Assembly: GCA_964030785.1 (NCBI GenBank)
Contig: OZ034968.1
Coordinates: 51,484,730 to 51,548,729 of the forward strand
Length of the DNA stretch: 64,000 bases
From: Siderastrea siderea
Taxonomy: Eukaryota > Cnidaria > Anthozoa > Scleractinia > Rhizangiidae
Reading direction: 5' to 3'
Under the pieces are notes generated by a model. That model was not told the origin of the DNA. It was given only the letters and a program-made list of their open reading frames with translations, and did not search any database. Positions 1 through 30,466 of the stretch are shown here, in pieces; position 1 is the stretch's first letter, and every line of letters starts with the position of its first letter. A program made the translations under genes and the position numbers.

Positions 1-1140
1 GATGATCGCCTGAACTAGTGCTTAATGGCATTCCTCTTGAAATCGTGTCTGCGGCAGTCGATTTATCCGATGCCTGAGCTTGCTTTATTCTTTCAGTTGT
101 TTCGAAAGGCCGTGGCATAGGCCCAACATTGTCTTTCTGGCATTTTTCTGTCGACACATGTCTTGGGTTCTGACCATTCTGTGTTGCCTGTGAGTACTTC
201 GTGCTGGGATGACCGTCGTGCTTATAAAGGACATTTTTTGGAAAATGGATACAAACTCTCTGGTGCAGATCCAATTCATTGCTTTTAGTTTGGAACTCCG
301 TTTTCGTTGGTTTTATCAACGCCCCTTCATTGGCATTATCCTGTCTTAGTAGGCCAGTTGGCACACCACCCTCCTGATTCGTATACCAGTGATCTGGCAA
401 GGTTTGGTTCCAGAATTCAGCTGGAATTTCTGCGGCAATTTCTTGACTTATTTTCAAACGCGTGTACCCTCGCTGTCCGTAAATGGGTCTTACTTCATCA
501 GGGATCATGCATTCACCCACGTCTTCATCAAAATAAAATTTTGAAATTTGAGAACCTCTCGTTTCTTTTTTGATACACATTACGTCAAAAGAGGCCTTCT
601 GGGTTTGTTCATTTTTTGCCGTTGCACTTTTCATTTGTTCATATGGCTGCCACAAAACCGGAAACTGCGCATATGGGGATGGAATTTTACTCCCCTCACC
701 GGGTCCTAGTTTGAGCTTCGGTGATTCTGTACCATTCGAACTGTCTGAAATGTTTGAACGGAGTGAAAAGGCAGACGTGATCTTGATGTTTAATAAGGAA
801 CTCTCTTCATTTGAAGGTAAAATACTGTCGCGAAAACGTCCATTAAAAGGCATTGTTGCGTTTCGGTAATCACTGCCTAGAGTAGAGTTTTGCTCTTCGT
901 TATAACCACACGCTAGCGAGTAATGAAGTGCAGATTTTAAACTTGTAGCATCATCGGTTGGCTGTACCCGCCTTTCGGTTTCTTGTCTAAAATCTCCATA
1001 ACGATTGGTTGCAAAACTTTGTCTCAGTTTGCTTTCAATCTCACACCCATCTTGGCCAAAGTAAATTGTGTAATCTCCGTGCTTTGCCCACTTTGTGCTG
1101 GCGATACTGCTCGTGTCCTCTCTGGTCCTTGCGGAGTTCC
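1..1140 (-). CDS. internal exon of unrecognised protein, runs off left edge
   Basis: Reading the minus strand from 1140 to 1, one frame stays open for 379 codons plus one base, while the other two frames meet stops early. That length is very unlikely by chance in AT-rich DNA. A splice acceptor (ATCAAATAG on the minus strand) ends at 1141, so the exon starts at 1140 with two bases completing a split codon. The peptide is hydrophilic, rich in Ser, Thr, Asn, Gln and Glu, and mostly disordered in appearance. The densest segment reads MIPDEVRPIYGQRGY, then RLKISQEIAAEIPAEFWNQT. I see no signal peptide, membrane segment, zinc finger or enzyme motif. Start, other exons and stop lie outside this exon. 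Open frames on the plus strand at 307-573 and 570-869 are its shadows. Function unknown. Confidence 0.7.
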
Positions 1141-1276
1141 CTATTTGATATAACAATACAGCATTCGAGCAAAACATGCTAAAATTGTTTGTCGTACTTC
1201 AGTAAATTAATATCACCTTGTCTAATTAGCAGTCAAGCCACGGTATCAAGTCTTACATGCGCTCATAGAAAACAAG

Positions 1277-1371
1277 GCTCGAAACGGCAGCTTTGGAATT
1301 TTTTTGAATTTTTGTTTCACTTCCCCACCGAAGCAATACCACAGTGGTTTTCGTAAAACCTAACCCCTTCA
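1277..1371 (+). repeat. dispersed repeat copy A (relative of 60951-61084)
   Basis: Begins GCTCGAAACGGCAGCTTT and ends near CCTAACCCC. It matches 60951-61084 at both ends but lacks a middle block. Blocks of this kind (CGAAACGTCAGCTTT...CCCCACCGA.GCA) occur in the untranslated parts of Penelope-like elements in my recollection; that class is inference. Confidence 0.5.
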
Positions 1372-2438
1372 TGTATGTGCTGTCTATTCAACTACATGTA
1401 AGACATTCAATGGTTAATTAAAGACATATATGCATACTAAATGCGTTGAACCAGAAGTTCCAGTAGGTTTTGGTGAGGTTAATCTCCAAATATGAGAAGA
1501 ATATTGTTAAAAAAATTTAGCAGAAGTCGTCATCAGAATCATTAGACACTGCTATATGCAACTAGTTCACACCATGTACTATAAATAAGATACTATTGTC
1601 AAATGTACATTAATGTAACTTTTACGAGTATTTGCATTTGTATCCACGTCTTTTCAAAGCGTAATTTGTTGTGCTCATGTTTAAACTATTACTAAAGTGG
1701 ATATAATAGAATTCACGTAGCCATAACATCGTTATCGTGTTTTCAGTCTAAGTAAACAAAACGACCAATTTGTTTTTTCTTTCACCTTTTTGCAGTCTTA
1801 ATATTTACGGTATCAAGTACAGTGAAAGGGCGCACATCCACGAATCACTCATATTTTTATGCCAAATGTTGTTCAGTCTTGAGAAACGTAAAAAATTCGT
1901 TTCAAACCTGATCAATGATCTGCTTTATCTTGTTGAAATCTCAGCCTGTAAAAAATCTGAAGGTGGTCAACGCGTAAGGTTCTGAGCGGCAAAACGAGAG
2001 AAATAAACTGAAACTAGCGTTTTTTGAAGCTTTGTATGTAATATTGCTTAAGGCCGCAAGTTCTTAACGAAACATATCGTTTCCATGGAATGGTGGATTT
2101 GAATAATCAGTACTTCACAAGCTCGCACACCACCTAGTTCTCCCATGATATGTTCTTTTGCCTTCGAATCGCCTTGGCGGATTTTGGTAGAAACAGGCTG
2201 TGTAATTTTATTCTTCCTGCCAAGAGGTTGTATGGCAGCATTAAGAGCTTAAATTGGTTCTCTCTGTGTACCACCGGTAAATGAAAACACTAAATAATCG
2301 ACTACACTGAAAAAATATCTAAAAACAAAGAACGTGCAATGTCAAGTGTCTCATTGGAACACAAGGACAGAGCCTTAACGTGGTTCCTGTGCAATTACTG
2401 TCTAAATTAGTGATTTAAAAGCACCCCTTTTCTTTTAG
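1372..2438. other. no gene seen
   Basis: AT-rich sequence with only short, featureless open frames. It may contain an intron and upstream exons of the gene at 1-1140, but I could not identify any. Confidence 0.4.
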
Positions 2439-2620
2439 CGAAGCCCGCGAGCCCAGCGGGCCAGCGGAGCCCCATTGGTAAGCAAATTTGGTAACGTATC
2501 GATGCGAGAAATTTTGGTTGTGACGTTAGCGTACGTACGTACGCCCGTCCGCACAGATTCTGGGGGAGGGTGAGGGGAGTCCCAAGGCAATCCGACCGTG
2601 GGGAGGAGAATGCCATCTTT
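2439..2620 (+). repeat. dispersed repeat family R1, copy 1
   Basis: GC-rich block from AGCGAAGCCCGCGAGCC to AGAATGCCATCTTTT, including GCAAATTTGGTAACGTATCG and AGAAATTTTGGTTGTGACG. The same ordered blocks occur at 9071-9166 (plus, shorter) and 9531-9716 (minus). Probably a non-autonomous element; the ends were not resolved. Confidence 0.7.
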
Positions 2621-3111
2621 TAAAAGAGAGGTTTTTTTTTAAAAAGTTTACTATTTAGCAAAACGATTGTTCGGACAGTTTTAAACTTTAAGAAAATAGG
2701 GAATATCTATACTGTAAAAGTGGACAGCGAAAAGTTAAGTTACGAACCGAAATTTGTCTTTGGGGACTTTCTCTTTCTTGAGTTCTGCTGCGTACTCGGT
2801 CGGCACATCGCTTGAGTTCGCAGCATTTGGCACCGGTGCCTACGCCAAACATAGCAGAGCTAGTGCCTTCTGTTTTTTTCTGTTTTCCTTCTGTTTCTTT
2901 TCTTTTTTTTTTTTTTGCGACGGTCCCAACAACTTTTTCCACGGAAAAACACCCATGTTTATCGCAACTCAAAAACTCGCGTAACTTCGTATCAAGTCGA
3001 CCATGCATTTCTCGGCGGTCCGAACACATTTTCCCAGAAAAACACCTGCGTGTTATCTCAATCGAGCTGCGATCAATAAACAGCTCATATGAAGACTCCA
3101 TATGACCACAT

Positions 3112-3160
3112 AGCGTTCCAGCGGCTTGGGTTCGAACCCCAGTGGGAGGAAAGTTTTATT
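3112..3160 (+). repeat. tRNA-like B box, possible SINE remnant
   Basis: GGTTCGAACCC at 3129-3139 fits an RNA polymerase III B box and sits in a short T-loop-like hairpin (TTGGGTTCGAACCCCAG). T-rich sequence follows. No convincing A box was found, so this is at most a degraded tRNA-derived SINE. Confidence 0.3.
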
Positions 3161-3945
3161 TTTTGTTTTGTATTGTTGTTTTTCTTTTTTGTAATTACTT
3201 TGAAAATGAATAAGCTCCAGCAATAAAAAAAAGTGGAGCTCCTCTTTTTGCTCGGATAAATCTTTTTCATAGTTTTGTAGATAAAACCAATCTTGAAGAA
3301 CCCTCATTTATTTAACTTAAACCTACGATCAATTGCGAAATTTTGGAAACTTTCATTTTTGTTTTGTTTTGTTTTGTTTTATAATAATACTAATAATACT
3401 TTAGTAGTTCGTGGTTTCCGGTGACCTGTTATGGACAATTTGCACTTCCGGTATGTAAGGAATTAAATGTATGTAAACATATTACCGGAGAATGTCCGGT
3501 ATTTGACAGATTGGTTGACTGATAAAATCAATAGCGACTTGAGAACTTTCTCGGTTGTAATCAGTGTCCTCTGTACGAGTTCTAGCGAGACACTTAAACC
3601 CTGTGGCTTTACCTGGAGAAATCGTTTTAAACCGTGATATCGTGAAGTACGGCCCCTAGGCATTCACGACAAATGTTTCAGCCTTCAGGCAAGGGCTCCA
3701 TTTAGATCCTAACGACACGAATGCAGGCTACTTGCAATCTCGAATCTATTGTTTATATAACAGCGATGCAACTGTCGTTCAAAGATCATTATTTACGTCA
3801 TAATAACAGCAAGGCCATTGTTCAGAGGCCGCGCTACCCCAAGAAGACTAAGTGAACTGACGGACGACGACTAGCGACGAAAATGAAAAACAAAAAACGT
3901 CCATTTTACGAGTCGGCGCGACGTGTGCGTACGCACGACTTCAGC

Positions 3946-4290
3946 CTAAAAAGGCAGCGAACTCCAAAGCATTGGCGCGCAAACTGAAAAGGATCTATAT
4001 TCGTAAGATCTAAGATTAAATGAGGGCGACTTCATCATCAGTTTCGAAGCAGATCGCAAGCTGCGCAGTGGAGAGTAAGGCTCCAAGAGAACAGGTAAGT
4101 ACTGAGGAGCCTTGCGTCGCCTGATATAAAAAAGTAACACCTTAAATTCAATACACTGCTCAACAGGCAGCCAATGTAACAATGTACAATGTAAGAAGTA
4201 GTGGTGTAACATGATCTGATTTTCTTGGCATGGTGACAAGCTGCAGAATTCAAAACATATTGCAGCCGCTGTAATAAATTCTTGGGGATT
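3946..4290 (-). pseudogene. LINE C-terminal fragment (CR1/L2/Jockey-like)
   Basis: Minus-strand reading gives LHWLPVEQCIEFKVLLF followed by APQYLPVLLEPYSPLRSLRSASK and FSVCAPMLWSSLPF, the conserved tail after the reverse transcriptase in CR1/L2-type LINEs. The upstream piece (LLQRLQYVLNSAACHHAKK) lies in another frame, so there is at least one frameshift. No reverse transcriptase core is present. An (ATT)n tract abuts it on the upstream side, which makes a spurious Asn-rich start to the open frame. Confidence 0.75.
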
Positions 4291-23686: not shown

Positions 23687-25937
23687 TTGTTTGATTGCGT
23701 CAATTACTCTTATGAGTTCGGAAAACTTTCAAATTCACAAAAACAGGCTATAATCACTTTAATTGAGAAAAAAGGAGAGGACAAAAGACTAATTAAAAAT
23801 TGGCGGCCTATATCGCTAATCAATGTCGATGCGAAAATTATTTCCAAAGTTTTAGCAAAGCGTTTGGAAAAGGTCTTGCCAAATTTAATACATCCTAATC
23901 AGAACGCATTCGTTAAAGGTAGGTCCATATTTGATGCAATTAGAACGATTGACGATATCGTAGATTACACCAAACGAAATAGCTGGTCGGGGATTGTAAT
24001 CGCCATCGATTTTGAAAAAGCCTTTGATACATTAGATTTCCAATTTCTAATCAGAACTTTACACAAATTTAACTTCGGCCCATCTTTTATTCAGTGGATG
24101 TGCGTTCTATACAAAAATGCATCCAGCTGTGTGATGAACAATGGCTTTACGACTGGTCCTTTTCCGTTAGGCAAGGGAGTCAGACAGGGGGATTCACTCT
24201 CTCCTTACCTCTTCATATTAGCGCTAGAGACTTTAGCTATAAAAATAAGACAGGACAGTAGTGTAAAGGGACTTAAAATTGGAGAAGAAATGATAAAACT
24301 ATCTCTATTTGCAGATGATATGACCTATATCATAAAAGACAAAATATCTTATACAAATTTGTTTCGTATTCTCGAATCTTTTGACTGAGTGTTCTGGCTT
24401 AAAGTTTAATGATGAAAAAACAGAAATCGTACCTCTAGGAGATAATATTCTGCAAGAAAAAGACTTCCCAAAACACAGTATTTGTGAAGTCATAAAAATT
24501 TGGGGGATATATTTTGGTTATGATGAACGACAAAGAAATAACCTTAACTTCAGTCAAACTTTAAAGAGTATAAAGAAATCAATCAACGTATGGAAATGGA
24601 GAGGCCTCTCGCTGTTAGGAAGAATACAGATAGTCAAAACCTTTGCTATCCCAAAGCTTATGTTCAGAGCATCTGCTATACCTATTTCAAAAGAACTAAT
24701 TAAAGAGGCAAACTCAATTTTTTACAATTTTATTTGGAATGGGAAAGATAAAGTGAAGCGTCTTGCACTTATATCTGATATAGAAATGGGAGGACTCAAA
24801 ATGTTAGACATTCAATCTATGAATAGCGCAAAACGAGTAACATGTATAAAGAAATTATTGGACGATTACTCAAGCCCTTGGAAAACAATCCTAGACAAAC
24901 TTCTGTTACCGGTTGGAGGACGTTTTGTATTACACTGCAATTTTCAAACTTGTAAATTGAAAATCAATCTACCAGCATATTACAAAGAATGTTTCGACGC
25001 GTCGTCAGAGATAAATGAGTTAACTCCAGGTTGTTATAAAGAAATCATTAACGAAATTATCTGGAATAACAAATTTCTTTGTTATGATAAAAAATCGATG
25101 TGCAGAAGGGACATAGTAAATTTAGGCCTCGTGAAGATAGGAGATTTAATTTCTGCAAACAACCCCTTCTCTCACGATATTTCTTCACTTATCAACCCCG
25201 AACAAAGATTTTTCCTTATGAGTATTATCAACTCGATTCCTACAGAATGGCGTTCACTTATTAAAGCTTCTACTGACGTAACAGTGGTCGACCCCATTCC
25301 AAGTATTCCAACTATTAAAATGGCAAGCGGTGATGTGGTACCAATCCTTGACATCTCTCCTAAACAGATCTATCAAATCCTTCTGCAGCCAAAACAAATT
25401 GCACCCACTGCTAAACAGAAATTAACAAACAAGTACTCAAATAAAGAGATTGATTGGGAAAAGGCTCATACATTGGCCTTTCAGTGCACTTTTGACACTA
25501 AGATCAGGGAATTTCAATATAAGATTCTAAATTGTATAATCTTTACAAACGAGAAACTTAATTTAATTGGTCTAGTTGAATCACCAAACTGCACTTTCTG
25601 TCAAGAGGCAACGGAATCCGTCGAGCCTTTACTTTTCTCCTGTAGGATAACCTCTAATTTTTAGAAACACGCCTTGTCCTGGCTAAGAGATAATGATGTT
25701 CATGTTGGGATAATTAACGAGCCGGATATCATTTTTGGAAAATTTGATATTGTAAAAGACTACATTTTAATTAATCATATCCTGTTATTAGGTAAATATT
25801 ATATCTACCATAGGAAATGTCAAAATAGCTTACCTACACTTAGAGGCTTTATTGCAAGACGTGTCTTCAATATCGAGCTCCATATTGCCAGGGAAAAAAT
25901 AAACTTCTTTTTCATTTACAAAAGTGGGAGAAGCTAA
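23687..25937 (+). pseudogene. LINE reverse transcriptase, frameshifted
   Basis: The reverse transcriptase opens in the truncated 5' part and shows, in order, NWRPISLINVDAKIISK, NAFVKGRSIFDAI, IAIDFEKAFDTLDF (first catalytic Asp), GVRQGDSLSPYLF, and FADD at about 24307-24318 (catalytic pair). This pattern is that of L1/Tx1-clade LINEs. A frameshift at about 24375-24390 moves the reading to the next frame, which continues with LKFNDEKTEIVPLG, the thumb and C-terminal region. An in-frame TAG at 25662-25664 falls where a Trp codon is likely (after SNF, before KHALSWL). A Cys-rich tail (CTFCQEATESVEPLLFSC) is the usual knuckle. Two lesions make this copy non-functional. Confidence 0.9.
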
Positions 25938-26324: not shown

Positions 26325-26503
26325 TTTGCAAGATTCCATTTGGTCGTGGATCTGTCCCCTGATAATGAACAAAAGACGCCAAAACGTGGTGAGAACGTCA
26401 GTCACGCCACTGAACTCCATCTCTTGTGTTCCTTGTCCTAGATATAGTACTCGACTTGCACTTCTATGTTCGAACCAAGTTTTGATGTCATCTGTGCATC
26501 ATT
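26325..26503 (-). repeat. MITE split by the 26.5-30.5 kb transposon, left part
   Basis: Blocks CCATTTGGTCGTGGATCTGT, CTGATAATGAACAAAAGACG, CAAAACGTGGTGAGAACGTC and TGATGTCATCTGTGCATCAT match, in order, the MITE at 50789-50965. The remainder continues at 30467-30506 after the inserted transposon. Confidence 0.7.
26498..26503. repeat. 6-bp target-site duplication (left), ATCATT
   Basis: ATCATT here and at 30461-30466. The uninterrupted MITE relative has one similar hexamer (ATTATC) at this spot, which supports duplication on insertion. Confidence 0.65.
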
Positions 26504-26956
26504 CCCAAATCGAATCTTCGGTTTTCGAACTCAATCGAACTTAATCGAACGAAAATCGAACGATTAAATTCGATGTTGTTCGGTCATCGAACGAAATCGA
26601 ACTCACAAAAAATAAATGCGAATCGAACCAAATCGAACGTTCGATTAAGTTCGAAAAGGTTCGATTTAGTTCTGTCGCCGAACGATACCTAAGCGAGCTT
26701 ACGTCTTATCACAATATAATCTGAATCGAGCAAAATCGATCACCATATCTGCTCGATTTGATTTAGTAATTGGGGAATGAAATGCGTCATTAGTGTTTTT
26801 TTAATTTGCAATGCAGAAAGATTTTGCATAGATAACGTCACAGAAGTGAGTGTTATGTTGTTCAACGGTTGAATTTGAGTATATACAGCTATTTCGAGAA
26901 ACGTTGTCGGAAAAAAGCAAAAAACTGCACAAGCCAATCCCGAAAGGTATTTTGGG
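26504..26956. repeat. left terminal inverted region with TTCGAT-type subrepeats
   Basis: Many copies of ATCGAAC and TTCGAT in both orientations at 26511-26660, then a unique block at 26881-26956 (ends ...AGGTATTTTGGG) that is inverted at 30010-30087. Clustered short sites are typical of transposase-binding arrays; that role is inference. Confidence 0.8.
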
Positions 26957-27003
26957 ATACGGTCAATGAATTTTAATAAGTCAATTGATACATTAAACCC
27001 GCG

Positions 27004-28607
27004 ATGCCTCGTCCGTACAGTGACGATCTTAGATGGCGAGCCATATGGATGAAGGAGTTTTTAGGTTATAGTGTAGATGATGTAGCGGCTACTTTATTCA
27101 TGTCCCCAAGAACGGTGGAGCGCTATATTTCAAAATGCCTAAATACTGGCGAAGTAAAATGGGAGAAATTAGGGCGACCTTTGAATAGTTTTTTTTTTTT
27201 TTTTTGCTATAAAACAAGACAACAACAAGCTTTATTACGGAATAGAAAAAGGAAAAAAAAGTTAAACTTTACAATATAATATATTAATACAAAAATAGGT
27301 AATGTTTACTCAGGATAACTAAAAAGCTAATCGAGCTGAGTAAAACTAAGTGGTGTTTAAGTACAGAGGTAGGTTGGCACTAAAGCTTGGTGAAAGCAAT
27401 TAATTAGTCAATTAAAAAAAGACGAAAAGAAGAAAATAAAGAAAATAAATAAGTAAAAATAAATAGTTTTGCCATGCATCCACACGTGGAGTTCGTAATT
27501 ATGGAAGCTGTTCTTGAACACCCGGACAAAACTCTTGCAGAGATTGCCTACGATGTCTACGAACAGACAGGGTCAGAAAATGTTGTTTCCAGCATATTGC
27601 GGTATTTGAAACGGAATAGTTTCACCCGCAAAAAGGTTTGTGAAATACTCGCTTTACTATAATAGGCCTTTTTATTTCGCAAATTTGCATCATTTTCCTG
27701 GTGTGTCAATTTAAGCGTGTTTTATCATTTTAAGCTGGCAAGAATTGCCCTTCAAAGATCTGAGGAAGCAAGAGTACTTTTCAGGTCCAATGTTTGTCTC
27801 CTGGATCCTGAAATGTTGGTGTTTTTGGACGAAAGCGGATTTGTAAGTATTCAATTGCTGTTTTACAACTTTTTGTACTCTTCAATTATTTTTCACAAAT
27901 CACAATTTTTTCGTCAACCTTTTACTTTTTTAGGACAAAAGACTTTCTCGCACCTATGGCTATAGTCTAGTCGGTAACAGAGCCACGGTCAAACGTCAGG
28001 CGCAGAACTGGGGACCGCGCATAACGGCCATACCCGTTATTTGTACGGAAGGAATGATAGAAGTGGGTATCTATCAGGGCAAGGTCGACGGGGCAAAATT
28101 TGAAGAGTTTGTGGATCAAAAGCTCTGCCCTAACTTGCTTCCATTTAATGGCATCAATCCACGATCAGTGGTCATAATGGGTAAGCATAAAATTTCTTGC
28201 AACACTACGATGTGGCGGTGGTTATGAAATTAAATATTTTTGTAACTCCTCAGATACTTCATTCCCTTCCATTTGAAATTTAAACCCTCTCTGATTCACG
28301 CGATTAGCATCACATTAATTTATTTCTTCCTTATTTTTCATTTGCCACAGATAATGCGGCTATCCACCACACCGACGCCGTAGTTAACAGGATTCATGCC
28401 GCGGGAGCAATGGTTGTGTTCCTTCCGCCATACAGCCCGGATTTTATGCCATGCGAAGAACTGTTTGCCCAAACAAAAAACTGGATCAGGGAAAATGACG
28501 CGGCCTGGCAATTTTGCCAGGATCCCAAATTTATGGTGGAAGAAGCATTTCTTCAGGTTACTGATGAACAGATCAGAAACTACATTCAACATGCCGAATA
28601 CCTGTGA
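27004..28607 (+). pseudogene. IS630/Tc1-like DD34E transposase, four exons, first exon interrupted
   Basis: Cut-and-paste transposase. Exons by GT-AG rules: 27004-27192 joined to 27471-27635 (one exon split by a retroposon), 27735-27842, 27934-28180 and 28351-28607. Lengths add to 321 codons with every phase consistent. Residues 1-60 form a helix-turn-helix (VDDVAATLFMSPRTVERYI), and a second HTH follows. Catalytic residues: Asp150 (VFLDESGF), Asp237, whose codon is split across intron 3, and Glu272 (PPYSPDFMPCE), giving DD34E. A basic segment between them (NRATVKRQAQNWGPRI) fits the family. The insertion at 27193-27461 ends the frame early (shortly after LGRPLNS), so this copy is probably dead although the rest is intact. 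The gene runs convergent to the second gene, 67 bp away. Confidence 0.85.
27193..27461 (-). mobile_element. retroposon inserted in transposase exon 1
   Basis: AATAGTTTT at 27184-27192 is repeated at 27462-27470. Reading minus, the insert ends AATAAAGCTTGTTGTTGTC and then 17 A (T run 27189-27205 on plus), like a polyadenylated retrotransposed 3' end. Removing the insert and one repeat restores an in-frame junction. Source family unknown; not the LINE at 23.7 kb. Confidence 0.85.
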
Positions 28608-28674
28608 TAAATAAACAAATGAATTATATTCAGTGTTAATGACGAATGTTTGATTATTATCGCATATTAAAAAA

Positions 28675-29975
28675 CTACAAAGAATTCATTTCTTTTAACA
28701 GTTTATCCTTTTGCAAAGAAAATTCGTTTTCTGTAAGGACGTCATCGTCTTTCAATGCTTTGAGATCCTTGAGCTGGTGAAGAATGCTTGAACGCATACG
28801 CACCTACAAGTAGAAAAGCGTTTGGTTAAGAAAATAATACACATTTAAAGGCCGCTAGCATCTGCTAAGAAATGCCTCTCTTGCCTTTCTTTCAGCGCCA
28901 TCCGTGGATTGTCCACTGACTTCACCTGATGTTTGACTTTTGAATGATTTTGAAGCCGCTTTCGAATTGCCAGTAAAAAATGGAACATTCGGAGGGTTAT
29001 CTTCACTCTTGTGGGTTCCGTTAACCTGTAATGGAATAAAATGATACAAATTGAACTATTCCTGTTTTCAATAGTTATTTTTACGGACACCCGCCGATCT
29101 CAATTCGAGCTCATCAGAGGAGGTAAAAACAACATAAAACCTTGACCAATAATTATATTGGAGAAGTGTAATTCGTTGTTGCAAAATTAGCTCAAAACTT
29201 GTCCAAGGCATTTCAGTCTCAAGAACGTGCAACACGTGCGTTTTATGCTAATTTTTGTAGACATTTGGAAACAACTTCTGGCTGAAAACTCGCCTTAGAA
29301 AATACGAAGCAAACAATCTTATAAAAATATAGTCTGAAGGTGGATATGAAATTTAACTAAAGAAGGTGAAAATTACTCTCGGCAACTCAAATTTTCCTTA
29401 CCACCATCCGCGCCCAGCAGCGCAATTTGAACTCGGGAAGAGTATGCTTCTCTCTAAGCCGTGAAAGACAAGAGTCGTAGCTGTTTTCTTCCTCTCCGTC
29501 CCCGCTATCATCTCGAGCACTACTGGGATTACCTAAGTCAGAATAGTGATAATCATAATCATTATCACTGAGAACAAGGGAAAAAATCTCACTTAACTTT
29601 TGGTGCAACAAAACGTGCAAAACATGGCTTATTGTGTTTCTTACCTTTTCTCTTTTTGCCCGAAGAACCCCTTGGAACGTCTTTATGTGGATCCACCCAC
29701 AATGTTATCATCCCGTTTTTTACCAAAGAAAACGCTTCGGCGAGCTGGATTTCGGACGATATAGAGAATTTCTTGTTTCCGTCCGCGTAGTAGCCGATTT
29801 GGAAGGTCGTGTCGGTTGCTGGAAATATTTCCTCTTTACAATTCTGCAGAAAGTATTGCTTCAATTGCATGACTGTTGCAAAGCAAGGTACTTTCCTGAC
29901 ACTGTAGGTGTCGTACCTGTTTTTGTGGGCTTCTTTCAGCACACGCAGACAGACGTCCATGGCGTCTCCTGCCAT
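28675..29975 (-). CDS. second transposon gene: PB1-like plus SHOCT-like protein, spliced
   Basis: Predicted exons on minus: 29975-29645, 29532-29402, 29025-28843 and 28803-28675. Splice sites are GT-AG and phases agree; total 258 codons including the stop. I start at the ATG at 29975 (context AACATGG), because the upstream Met at 30014 lies in the inverted end. The N-terminus (about residues 10-90) resembles PB1/ubiquitin-like folds, with GYYADGNKKFSISSEIQLAEA recalling the acidic OPCA loop and ITLWVDP a closing strand. A basic patch (GKKRKG) and an acidic stretch (DDSGDGEEE) follow. The last exon, LKDLKALKDDDVLTENEF then QKDKLLKEM, resembles a SHOCT domain. A TAG at 28857-28855 interrupts exon 3 unless exon 3 is terminal. 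Probably a transposition partner; function unknown. Confidence 0.6.
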
Positions 29976-30009
29976 GTTTTTTAAAGATTTCACGGAAATG
30001 ATGAAACTA

Positions 30010-30460
30010 CCCAAAATACCTTTCGGGTTGGCTTGTGCAGTTTTCTGGGGTTTTTTTCCGACAACGTTTCTCGAAATAGCTGTATATATTTCGATCCCGC
30101 ATACAATTTTTATGAATGGCTTACTGCGTATTAGATTGCTCGAATATTATGTATTGTTACTTTAGGATCAAATAAAAGACAAAGATTATACGATACCGTA
30201 TCCAGTCACTTATTCCAAAACCATTTAAGGAATAAACAAGAAATTTTTACTCGCTCATTAGGTTTGAAGTTCTTTATTTTGAATTTTAGCTACAAGTTCG
30301 ATTTCCAAACTTAATCGAACTAAATCGAACGCTAAATTTAGTTGTTCGATTTCGTTCGATGACCGAACAACATCGAATCTAATCGTTCGATTTTCGTCCG
30401 ATTTCGTTCGATTGAGTTCGATGACAAATTCGTTCGGTTTTGTTCGATTTGATACCCGGG
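30010..30460. repeat. right terminal inverted region
   Basis: 30010-30087 is the inverse of 26881-26956, and 30344-30421 the inverse of 26525-26602. The outer part again holds many TTCGAT/ATCGAA units (30296-30450). The element ends at ...GATACCCGGG, followed by ATCATT. Confidence 0.8.
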
Positions 30461-30466
30461 ATCATT
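30461..30466. repeat. 6-bp target-site duplication (right), ATCATT
   Basis: Same hexamer as 26498-26503; flanking bases differ, so the repeat is exactly six. Confidence 0.65.

What the first reader, a model, noticed from the sequence alone, without database searches (positions are those of the whole stretch)
26504..30460. Two-gene transposon with an IS630/Tc1-type transposase but a 6-bp target duplication
Seen: DD34E transposase signature, long inverted ends with dense TTCGAT-type sites, ATCATT on both sides. Known: Tc1/mariner and IS630 elements duplicate TA. Inference: either a distinct superfamily (IS3EU is one I recall with 6-bp duplications) or an undescribed lineage that couples this transposase to a second gene.
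Basis: partly seen in the sequence, partly recalled or inferred. Interest (0 to 1): 0.88.

Follow-up and report, generated by a model that had tools for sequence, protein, structure and literature searches.

The report
Coral TA-transposon nested inside another
What looked like one jumping gene with odd 6-letter footprints is two unrelated elements, one sitting inside the other; the inner one is a TA-targeting Tc1/mariner-type transposon that usually travels with an unusual second gene, which is the interesting part.

Summary
ATCATT and the TTCGAT-rich inverted ends belong to an outer, non-coding MITE-like repeat (about 740 bp, ends CCCGG..CCGGG); 11 of 16 non-duplicate copies with both ends have an exact 6-bp TSD. 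The two-gene transposon (26886-30082) is a separate element inserted into it. Of 37 other loci fetched, 32 have both ends, and all 32 finish at CAGC..GCTG (one AAGC) with TA outside. All 8 outer copies that span the insertion site have 10 bp where the window has 6+6, so the inner insertion duplicated 2 bp. The transposase is IS630/Tc1/mariner-type DDE_3, DD34E. The second gene is real: convergent, encoding a protein with a predicted PB1 fold and a SHOCT-like tail. It lies beside the transposase, always convergent, at 19 of 28 divergent transposase loci, shows purifying selection, and has homologues in corals and an anemone. So this is an anthozoan two-gene Tc1/mariner-type lineage; the second gene's role is unknown. 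My paper searches found no description of it. New variant of a known kind; moderate interest.

The parts
26498..26503 (.). ATCATT, left copy of the 6-bp TSD of the OUTER element
   Evidence: sequence; 6-bp TSDs in other outer copies
26504..26885 (+). left part of the OUTER MITE-like element (CCC..; TTCGAT-rich inverted repeat)
   Evidence: repeat family in the same genome: 85 matches, 493 first-look candidates of which 40 scored; alignment of 10 copies
26884..26885 (.). TA, left copy of the 2-bp TSD of the INNER transposon
26886..30082 (+). INNER two-gene IS630/Tc1/mariner-type transposon, CAGCTATTTCGAG...CTCGAAATAGCTG (about 2.92 kb in most complete copies; 3.2 kb here because of the insert)
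   Evidence: 37 other loci fetched; ends, lengths and TA flanks
26886..26956 (+). inner left terminal inverted repeat
   Evidence: (I2, I3, I15)
27004..27192 (+). transposase exon 1, first part (HTH_23 E 1.6e-5), up to the insert
27193..27470 (-). poly-T-led insert that interrupts transposase exon 1 in this copy; direct repeat AATAGTTTT at 27184-27192 and 27462-27470 (retroposon-like)
   Evidence: not covered by any other listed row; coordinates
27471..27635 (+). transposase exon 1, second part
27735..27842 (+). transposase exon 2 (first catalytic D, by eye)
   Evidence: splice sites inferred
27934..28180 (+). transposase exon 3
28351..28607 (+). transposase exon 4 (second D, then E after 34 residues; stop TGA)
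28675..28803 (-). gene 2 exon 4 (SHOCT-like C-terminus)
   Evidence: translation; same C-terminus in homologues
28885..29024 (-). gene 2 exon 3 (GC-AG donor inferred by eye)
   Evidence: sequence; protein homologues continue in frame
29402..29531 (-). gene 2 exon 2
29645..29975 (-). gene 2 exon 1 (PB1-fold domain)
   Evidence: fold of the homologue P0002
30010..30082 (-). inner right terminal inverted repeat
30083..30084 (.). TA, right copy of the inner TSD
30083..30460 (+). right part of the OUTER MITE-like element (..CCCGGG)
   Evidence: alignment with other copies
30461..30466 (.). ATCATT, right copy of the outer TSD

Best explanation
Two nested elements. First, a roughly 740-bp non-coding MITE-like element with CCCGG..CCGGG ends inserted here and duplicated 6 bp (ATCATT). 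Later a two-gene IS630/Tc1/mariner-type transposon jumped into a TA inside that MITE and duplicated TA. Later still, a poly-T-led retroposon-like piece landed in the transposase's first exon. The inner element moves by DDE cut-and-paste into TA: the HTH part binds the terminal repeats and the DD34E domain cuts and joins (inferred from the known family, not shown here). The two genes point towards each other from the two terminal repeats, so each repeat probably carries the promoter of one gene (inferred). The second gene makes a protein with a predicted PB1 fold and a SHOCT-like tail. It has been kept with the transposase through several old families of this genome. The likeliest role is an oligomerising partner of the transposase complex or of the element's chromatin (inferred, about 0.35; no function was tested). 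The confidence given is for the nesting and the family, not for that role.
For: Whole-genome search: among the 40 scored candidates only the window copy spans 1-3957 of the finding; the other 37 loci stop at the inner ends or inside them. TA on both sides in 32 of 32 copies with both ends; a 4-bp flank match in 14 and a 6-bp match in only 2 of 32. Paralogous empty site: 10 bp in 8 of 8 outer copies that span it, against 6+6 in the window. The outer family has its own copies and exact 6-bp TSDs in 11 of 16 non-duplicate copies with both ends, window included, plus two loci with exact 6-bp repeats at ends 23.6 kb apart. Transposase: DDE_3; the 88%-identical relative P0065 passes the NCBIfam IS630 cut-off, 115.4 against 100 bits. 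Gene 2: the 75%-identical Montipora homologue P0002 is predicted with a beta-grasp N-terminus (AlphaFold2, 38 sequences), and Foldseek lists PB1 structures first (4mjs_H, a PB1 complex, E 7.5e-5; p62-PB1 filament 6tgy E 1.5e-4; probability 1.00). Gene 2 adjacent and convergent at 19 of 28 divergent transposase loci; two of these read in full (L065, L066) have both genes between 63-64-bp terminal repeats. Gene 2 exon 1 pN 0.27 against pS 0.79; transposase exon 3 pN 0.20 against pS 0.71.
Against: Five of 16 outer copies lack an exact 6-bp repeat (L046, L049, L050, L051, L055), and let the borders slide by a few bases. Six of 28 divergent transposase loci show no gene 2 within 50 kb among the rows compared, and 10 of the 32 gene-2 rows compared have no listed transposase within 20 kb, so the coupling is not universal or is lost in decayed copies. 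The PB1 call rests on the predicted fold: the sequence match is weak (PF00564 E 0.17 for the window's piece; 2 of 38 members at E 0.01), a profile search of PDB sequences did not find PB1, and Foldseek also lists other ubiquitin-like folds such as the RING1B C-terminus. The tail matches GvpG in more members (6 of 38, below the cut-off for P0002) than SHOCT (3 of 38). No expression or protein data.
Confidence: 0.95

Rival explanations
1. One transposon, 26504-30460, with an IS630/Tc1-type transposase and a 6-bp TSD: a new superfamily or lineage.
For: ATCATT at both outer borders and long inverted ends.
Against: Only the window copy has those borders among the 40 candidates scored; 32 of 32 copies with both ends finish at CAGC..GCTG with TA; the outer part recurs without the genes; the empty site shows a 2-bp duplication.
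Confidence: 0.01
2. The second gene is an accidental passenger caught by this family and carried along without a role.
For: Within this family the copies are one recent burst (mean pairwise difference 0.8% over 28 copies), so their sharing of the gene alone proves nothing. Six of 28 divergent transposase loci lack a detected gene 2.
Against: The same convergent pair at 19 of 28 divergent loci with gene-2 identities of 28-62%; similar exon junctions at about residues 111, 155 and 203 in L065; purifying selection; homologues in corals and an anemone, some of whose frames read upstream through what looks by eye like a related terminal repeat (against the reading of the repeat).
Confidence: 0.08
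3. Gene 2 encodes a regulator (repressor or titrator of the transposase, or an anti-silencing factor) rather than a helper of transposition.
For: About 506-bp derivatives keep the terminal repeats and a PB1-like fragment but no transposase (L067), as a self-limiting regulator or a simple deletion derivative would.
Against: Nothing decides between helper and regulator; the fragment ends early and may be plain debris.
Confidence: 0.3

Closest known systems
IS630/Tc1/mariner (ITm) DNA transposons
   Same: DDE_3 DD34E transposase with N-terminal HTH, terminal inverted repeats, TA duplication
   Different: ITm elements are usually one-gene (recalled); this one has a second, convergent, intron-bearing gene
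TBE and Tec elements of ciliates (PMC7325037, passages read)
   Same: DD34E transposases of the Tc1/mariner kind in elements with more than one ORF
   Different: Tec carries a site-specific recombinase there, not a PB1/SHOCT protein; ciliate hosts, not animals
IS3EU/GingerRoot (PMC10045372, passages read)
   Same: 6-bp TSD, but that matches only the OUTER element here
   Different: IS3EU/GingerRoot are related to IS3/IS481 and have TA..TA (some TG..CA) ends; the inner element has DDE_3, CAGC ends and TA; the outer has CCCGG ends and no gene found
MUGB (MUSTANG) genes of flowering plants (PMC3435246 and PMC8616336, passages read)
   Same: a PB1 domain together with transposase sequence
   Different: domesticated Mutator-type genes with the PB1 exon joined to the transposase, in plants; PMC8616336 calls PB1 'usually not associated with TEs'. 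Here it is a separate gene inside a mobile Tc1/mariner-type element
PB1 domain of p62/SQSTM1 and kin
   Same: predicted fold of the first about 95 residues of gene 2
   Different: very weak sequence similarity; joined to a SHOCT-like tail and carried by a transposon
CMITEs of Acropora (PMC2872659, abstract and passages read)
   Same: coral MITEs
   Different: about 100 bp with TTAA duplications; the outer element here is about 740 bp with 6 bp

Membership tests
IS630/Tc1/mariner (inner element) | DDE_3-type catalytic domain with DD34D/E spacing | tested here: met
   PF13358 E 3.8e-27; spacing counted by eye; P0065 above the NCBIfam IS630 cut-off (P0070, a more distant relative, scored 86.6, below it)
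IS630/Tc1/mariner (inner element) | TA target and 2-bp duplication | tested here: met
   32 of 32 copies with both ends; empty-site arithmetic 8 of 8
IS630/Tc1/mariner (inner element) | N-terminal helix-turn-helix DNA-binding part | tested here: met
   HTH_23 E 1.6e-5, 25 bits against a cut-off of 24.6
IS630/Tc1/mariner (inner element) | place in a tree with Tc1, mariner, pogo and IS630 references | tested here: inconclusive
   tree of 59 rows holds only database relatives; the query sits in an anthozoan set of 8 rows, SH-aLRT 98; no Tc1, mariner or pogo reference rows were included
IS3EU/GingerRoot (inner element) | IS3/IS481-like transposase, TA..TA ends, about 6-bp TSD | tested here: not met
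   DDE_3, CAGC ends, TA duplication
IS3EU/GingerRoot (outer element) | TA..TA (or TG..CA) ends with 6-bp TSD | tested here: not met
   6-bp TSD yes, ends CCCGG..CCGGG
Dada (outer element) | insertion into small RNA genes, no terminal inverted repeats | tested here: not met
   definition from passages of PMC3706591; the outer element has inverted ends and differing 6-bp flanks from copy to copy
Polinton/Maverick (outer element, as a derivative) | 6-bp TSD and a type-B DNA polymerase in the long copies (recalled) | tested here: inconclusive
   6-bp TSD met; no listed PF03175 hit inside the two 23.6-kb intervals, but only 74 of 2638 candidates were scored and the listing was cut
TBE/Tec-type multi-gene ITm elements | extra genes of the ciliate kind, such as the site-specific recombinase of Tec | tested here: not met
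   gene 2 has a predicted PB1 fold and a SHOCT-like tail
Zator, ISL2EU | their own transposase types and TSD lengths | not tested
   no reference sequences at hand; made unlikely by DDE_3 plus TA

The most novel reading that the evidence does not exclude
An anthozoan lineage of Tc1/mariner-type transposons runs on two proteins: the transposase and a dedicated PB1/SHOCT partner that assembles or protects the transposition complex. It would be a two-component ITm system in animals, kept across several old families and still shedding small PB1-bearing derivatives.
Probability: 0.35. Interest if true: 0.7.

Novelty: new variant of a known kind. Interest (0 to 1): 0.48.

Why it matters
It removes a supposed new superfamily: the 6-bp duplication is not made by an IS630-type transposase. 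It also shows a trap for sequence readers, because nested elements can lend one another's borders. What remains is an animal Tc1/mariner-type lineage with a long-kept second gene, in a group usually taken to need only its transposase (recalled). If the PB1 protein takes part in transposition or its control, these young elements (28 near-full copies about 99% alike, 14 of them with an open transposase frame) would give a workable test case.

Tried and rejected
Rejected: IS3EU membership; CMITE and Dada for the outer element. The sequence route to PB1 was weak, so the predicted fold of a homologue was used; GvpG matched the tail of more members (6 of 38) than SHOCT (3 of 38), below the curated cut-off for P0002, and was not taken up. 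PDB matches to the designed 'Pizza' proteins cover only about 32-38 residues, had no stretch passing on its own and were ignored. An rve-SHOCT database protein (P0051) looked like a link to another transposon type, but it reads as a chimera of neighbouring elements and was not followed. Two outer-family end pairs 23.6 kb apart with exact 6-bp repeats suggested a giant parent element. However, of the C14 interval the sampled pieces had only short frames (L073 none of 90 aa or more; L074 two of 116 and 103 aa without a Pfam match above cut-off; L069 up to 159 aa of repeated letters), and L074 is itself a repeat found at many other places, none of the listed ones in the C4 interval (39 of 540 candidates scored, listing cut). 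They may simply be MITEs with large insertions, so the parent of the outer family remains unknown. Paper searches for a second, PB1 or SHOCT gene in a Tc1/mariner element listed none that describes it; the nearest are the MUGB genes (passages). For papers not named in this report only listings and abstract starts were seen. Repbase was not available.
Full report
What is there. The stretch 26504-30460 is bordered by ATCATT on both sides and has TTCGAT-rich inverted ends. It encodes a DDE_3 transposase in four exons on the plus strand and a second gene in four exons on the minus strand. Splice sites are inferred from the open frames and from homologues.

It is not one element. In the window's own genome (G000, 831 Mb, 402 contigs) only the window copy spans the whole stretch among the candidates scored (40 of 945; listing cut). 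37 other loci hold only parts of query 365-3588, and no listed row besides the window's covers 690-958. I fetched all 37 with flanks. 32 have both ends; all 32 end CAGCTATTTCGAG..CTCGAAATAGCTG with a few substitutions (one has AAGC at the left), and all 32 have TA directly outside on both sides. A 4-bp flank match occurs in 14 of 32 and a 6-bp match in 2 of 32. The inner element is thus 26886-30082 with TA at 26884-26885 and 30083-30084. Some of the 37 are segmental duplicates (L014/L015, L029/L039), so they are not all independent insertions.

The outer element is an independent repeat. A search with its left arm gave 85 matches (493 first-look candidates, 40 scored). I fetched 19 outer loci. 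Ten aligned copies show that the window's arms are one continuous, roughly 740-bp non-coding element in the others, though some copies carry other insertions or deletions. At the inner insertion point 8 of 10 copies keep the anchors, and all 8 have 10 bp between them; the window has 6 on each side of the inner element, that is 12. So the insertion duplicated exactly 2 bp. Two copies (L048, L049) lack the anchors and could not be counted.

The 6-bp duplication belongs to the outer element. Of 20 rows (19 loci and the window), L048, L053 and L063 lack a usable end and L062 repeats L049. Of the 16 left, 11 have an exact 6-bp repeat at or within a base or two of the consensus border: L047, L052, L054, L056-L061, L064 and the window. 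Five do not (L046, L049, L050, L051, L055). The script let the borders slide by up to 3-4 bases. Two further loci, whose ends lie 23.6 kb apart, have exact 6-bp repeats too. The family's superfamily is unknown.

A third event: a 278-bp poly-T-led piece with 9-bp direct repeats lies in transposase exon 1 of the window copy (27193-27470). It interrupts the window's own frame. Of 28 near-full copies, 14 have an open spliced transposase frame, one of them with a 39-bp deletion (the script's last exon border ran two bases long, which gave a constant remainder of 2). Mean pairwise difference among these 28 is 0.8%: a young burst.

What the transposase is. The piece after the insert matches DDE_3 (E 3.8e-27) and the piece before it HTH_23 (E 1.6e-5). 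P0065, 88% identical, passes the NCBIfam IS630 cut-off (115.4 against 100), while the more distant P0070 does not (86.6). In a tree of 59 rows the transposase of copy L009 groups with P0065 and Acropora (SH-aLRT 99), within a set of 8 rows (98) whose named members are Acropora, Pocillopora, Paramuricea and Actinostola. No Tc1, mariner or pogo references were in that tree. With TA duplication and inverted repeats, membership in IS630/Tc1/mariner is well supported.

What the second gene is. 63 database proteins match at E 0.01 or better, named ones from Montipora, Porites, Acropora, Oculina, Desmophyllum, Stylophora and the anemone Exaiptasia. Several frames read upstream into letters that resemble, by eye, the reading of the window family's terminal repeat, so gene 2 seems to stand beside such a repeat in other corals too. 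At E 0.01, of 38 aligned members SHOCT matches 3, PB1 2 and GvpG 6. AlphaFold2 on the Montipora homologue P0002 gives a beta-grasp N-terminus (10-residue means 78-90 over residues 1-90; whole model 74.6, pTM 0.41). Foldseek lists PB1 structures first (4mjs_H E 7.5e-5; p62-PB1 filament 6tgy E 1.5e-4; TM-score by target 0.57-0.70 in the top 15); other ubiquitin-like folds follow. A profile search of PDB sequences found no PB1.

The coupling is old. In this genome a second family at 56-57% gene-2 identity (eight rows with a 143-aa frame) was read in two loci. L065 and L066 each hold both genes, convergent, between 63-64-bp terminal repeats that share TACAGCTATTTC..AACGTTGTCGG with the window family. 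Over the genome I clustered 45 listed transposase exon rows outside the near-identical family into 28 loci (148 of 522 candidates scored, listing cut) and compared them with 32 of the 145 gene-2 rows, picked by hand. I left out the near-identical family and most of the short 33-42% rows; left-out rows could only add neighbours. At 19 of 28 loci gene 2 lies within 5 kb, all 19 convergent; at 3 more it lies 11-19 kb away; at 6 none was found within 50 kb. Gene-2 identities at the 19 run from 28 to 62%. Between the window family and L065, gene 2 exon 1 has pN 0.27 and pS 0.79 (saturated), transposase exon 3 pN 0.20 and pS 0.71: both show purifying selection.

Derivatives. The short 33-42% group is represented by L067: about 506 bp, terminal repeats with the shared AACGTTGTCGG core, and a PB1-like fragment. 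It is 89% alike in DNA to the gene-2 end of L068, where a transposase fragment lies in the convergent position. They look like deletion derivatives of a third two-gene family.

How it works. Shown: two genes, TA duplication, nested history, long co-retention. Inferred: cut-and-paste by the DD34E transposase; one promoter in each terminal repeat; the PB1 protein as an oligomerising helper, or alternatively a regulator. No experiment decides the last point.

Known or new. Multi-ORF elements of the Tc1/mariner kind are described for ciliates (TBE, Tec; passages of PMC7325037), and a PB1 exon joined to a domesticated Mutator-type transposase in plants (MUGB; passages). I found no paper describing a PB1/SHOCT gene in a Tc1/mariner element in the searches. 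Repbase, subscription papers and preprints were not searched, so it may be listed there. I rate it a new variant of a known kind.

Noticed in passing
G000 C4:17182270-17205903 and C14:39293844-39317505 (L069-L074): Two pairs of outer-family ends 23,634 and 23,662 bp apart, each with an exact 6-bp repeat (GATACA, CACAAT). Either long members of the outer family or MITEs with large nested insertions; one sampled interior piece is a repeat of its own.
   Followed up: partly
window 27193-27470: Poly-T-led, retroposon-like insert with 9-bp direct repeats (AATAGTTTT) in transposase exon 1, in this copy only among those listed; its own copy number was not found.
   Followed up: partly
L067:2240-2747; L011:498-1004; L028:3927-4435: Roughly 506-bp non-autonomous elements that keep a PB1-like frame and related terminal repeats. 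In L011 and L028 the two-gene element sits directly at the end of such a derivative.
   Followed up: partly
L014/L015 and L029/L039: Pairs of inner copies with the same flanking letters on a side, so probably segmental duplicates rather than independent insertions.
   Followed up: no
window 24336-25664: Reading frame like the end of a non-LTR reverse transcriptase (zf-RVT E 1.2e-5, 26.3 bits against a cut-off of 27.5).
   Followed up: partly
G000, genome-wide: Many open frames matching DNA_pol_B_2 (PF03175: 204 matches, 74 of 2638 candidates scored, 0 of 14 control genomes), as Polinton-like elements would give (inference).
   Followed up: no
whole window: The host looks like a stony coral: the closest named protein relatives of both genes are from Scleractinia.
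   Followed up: no
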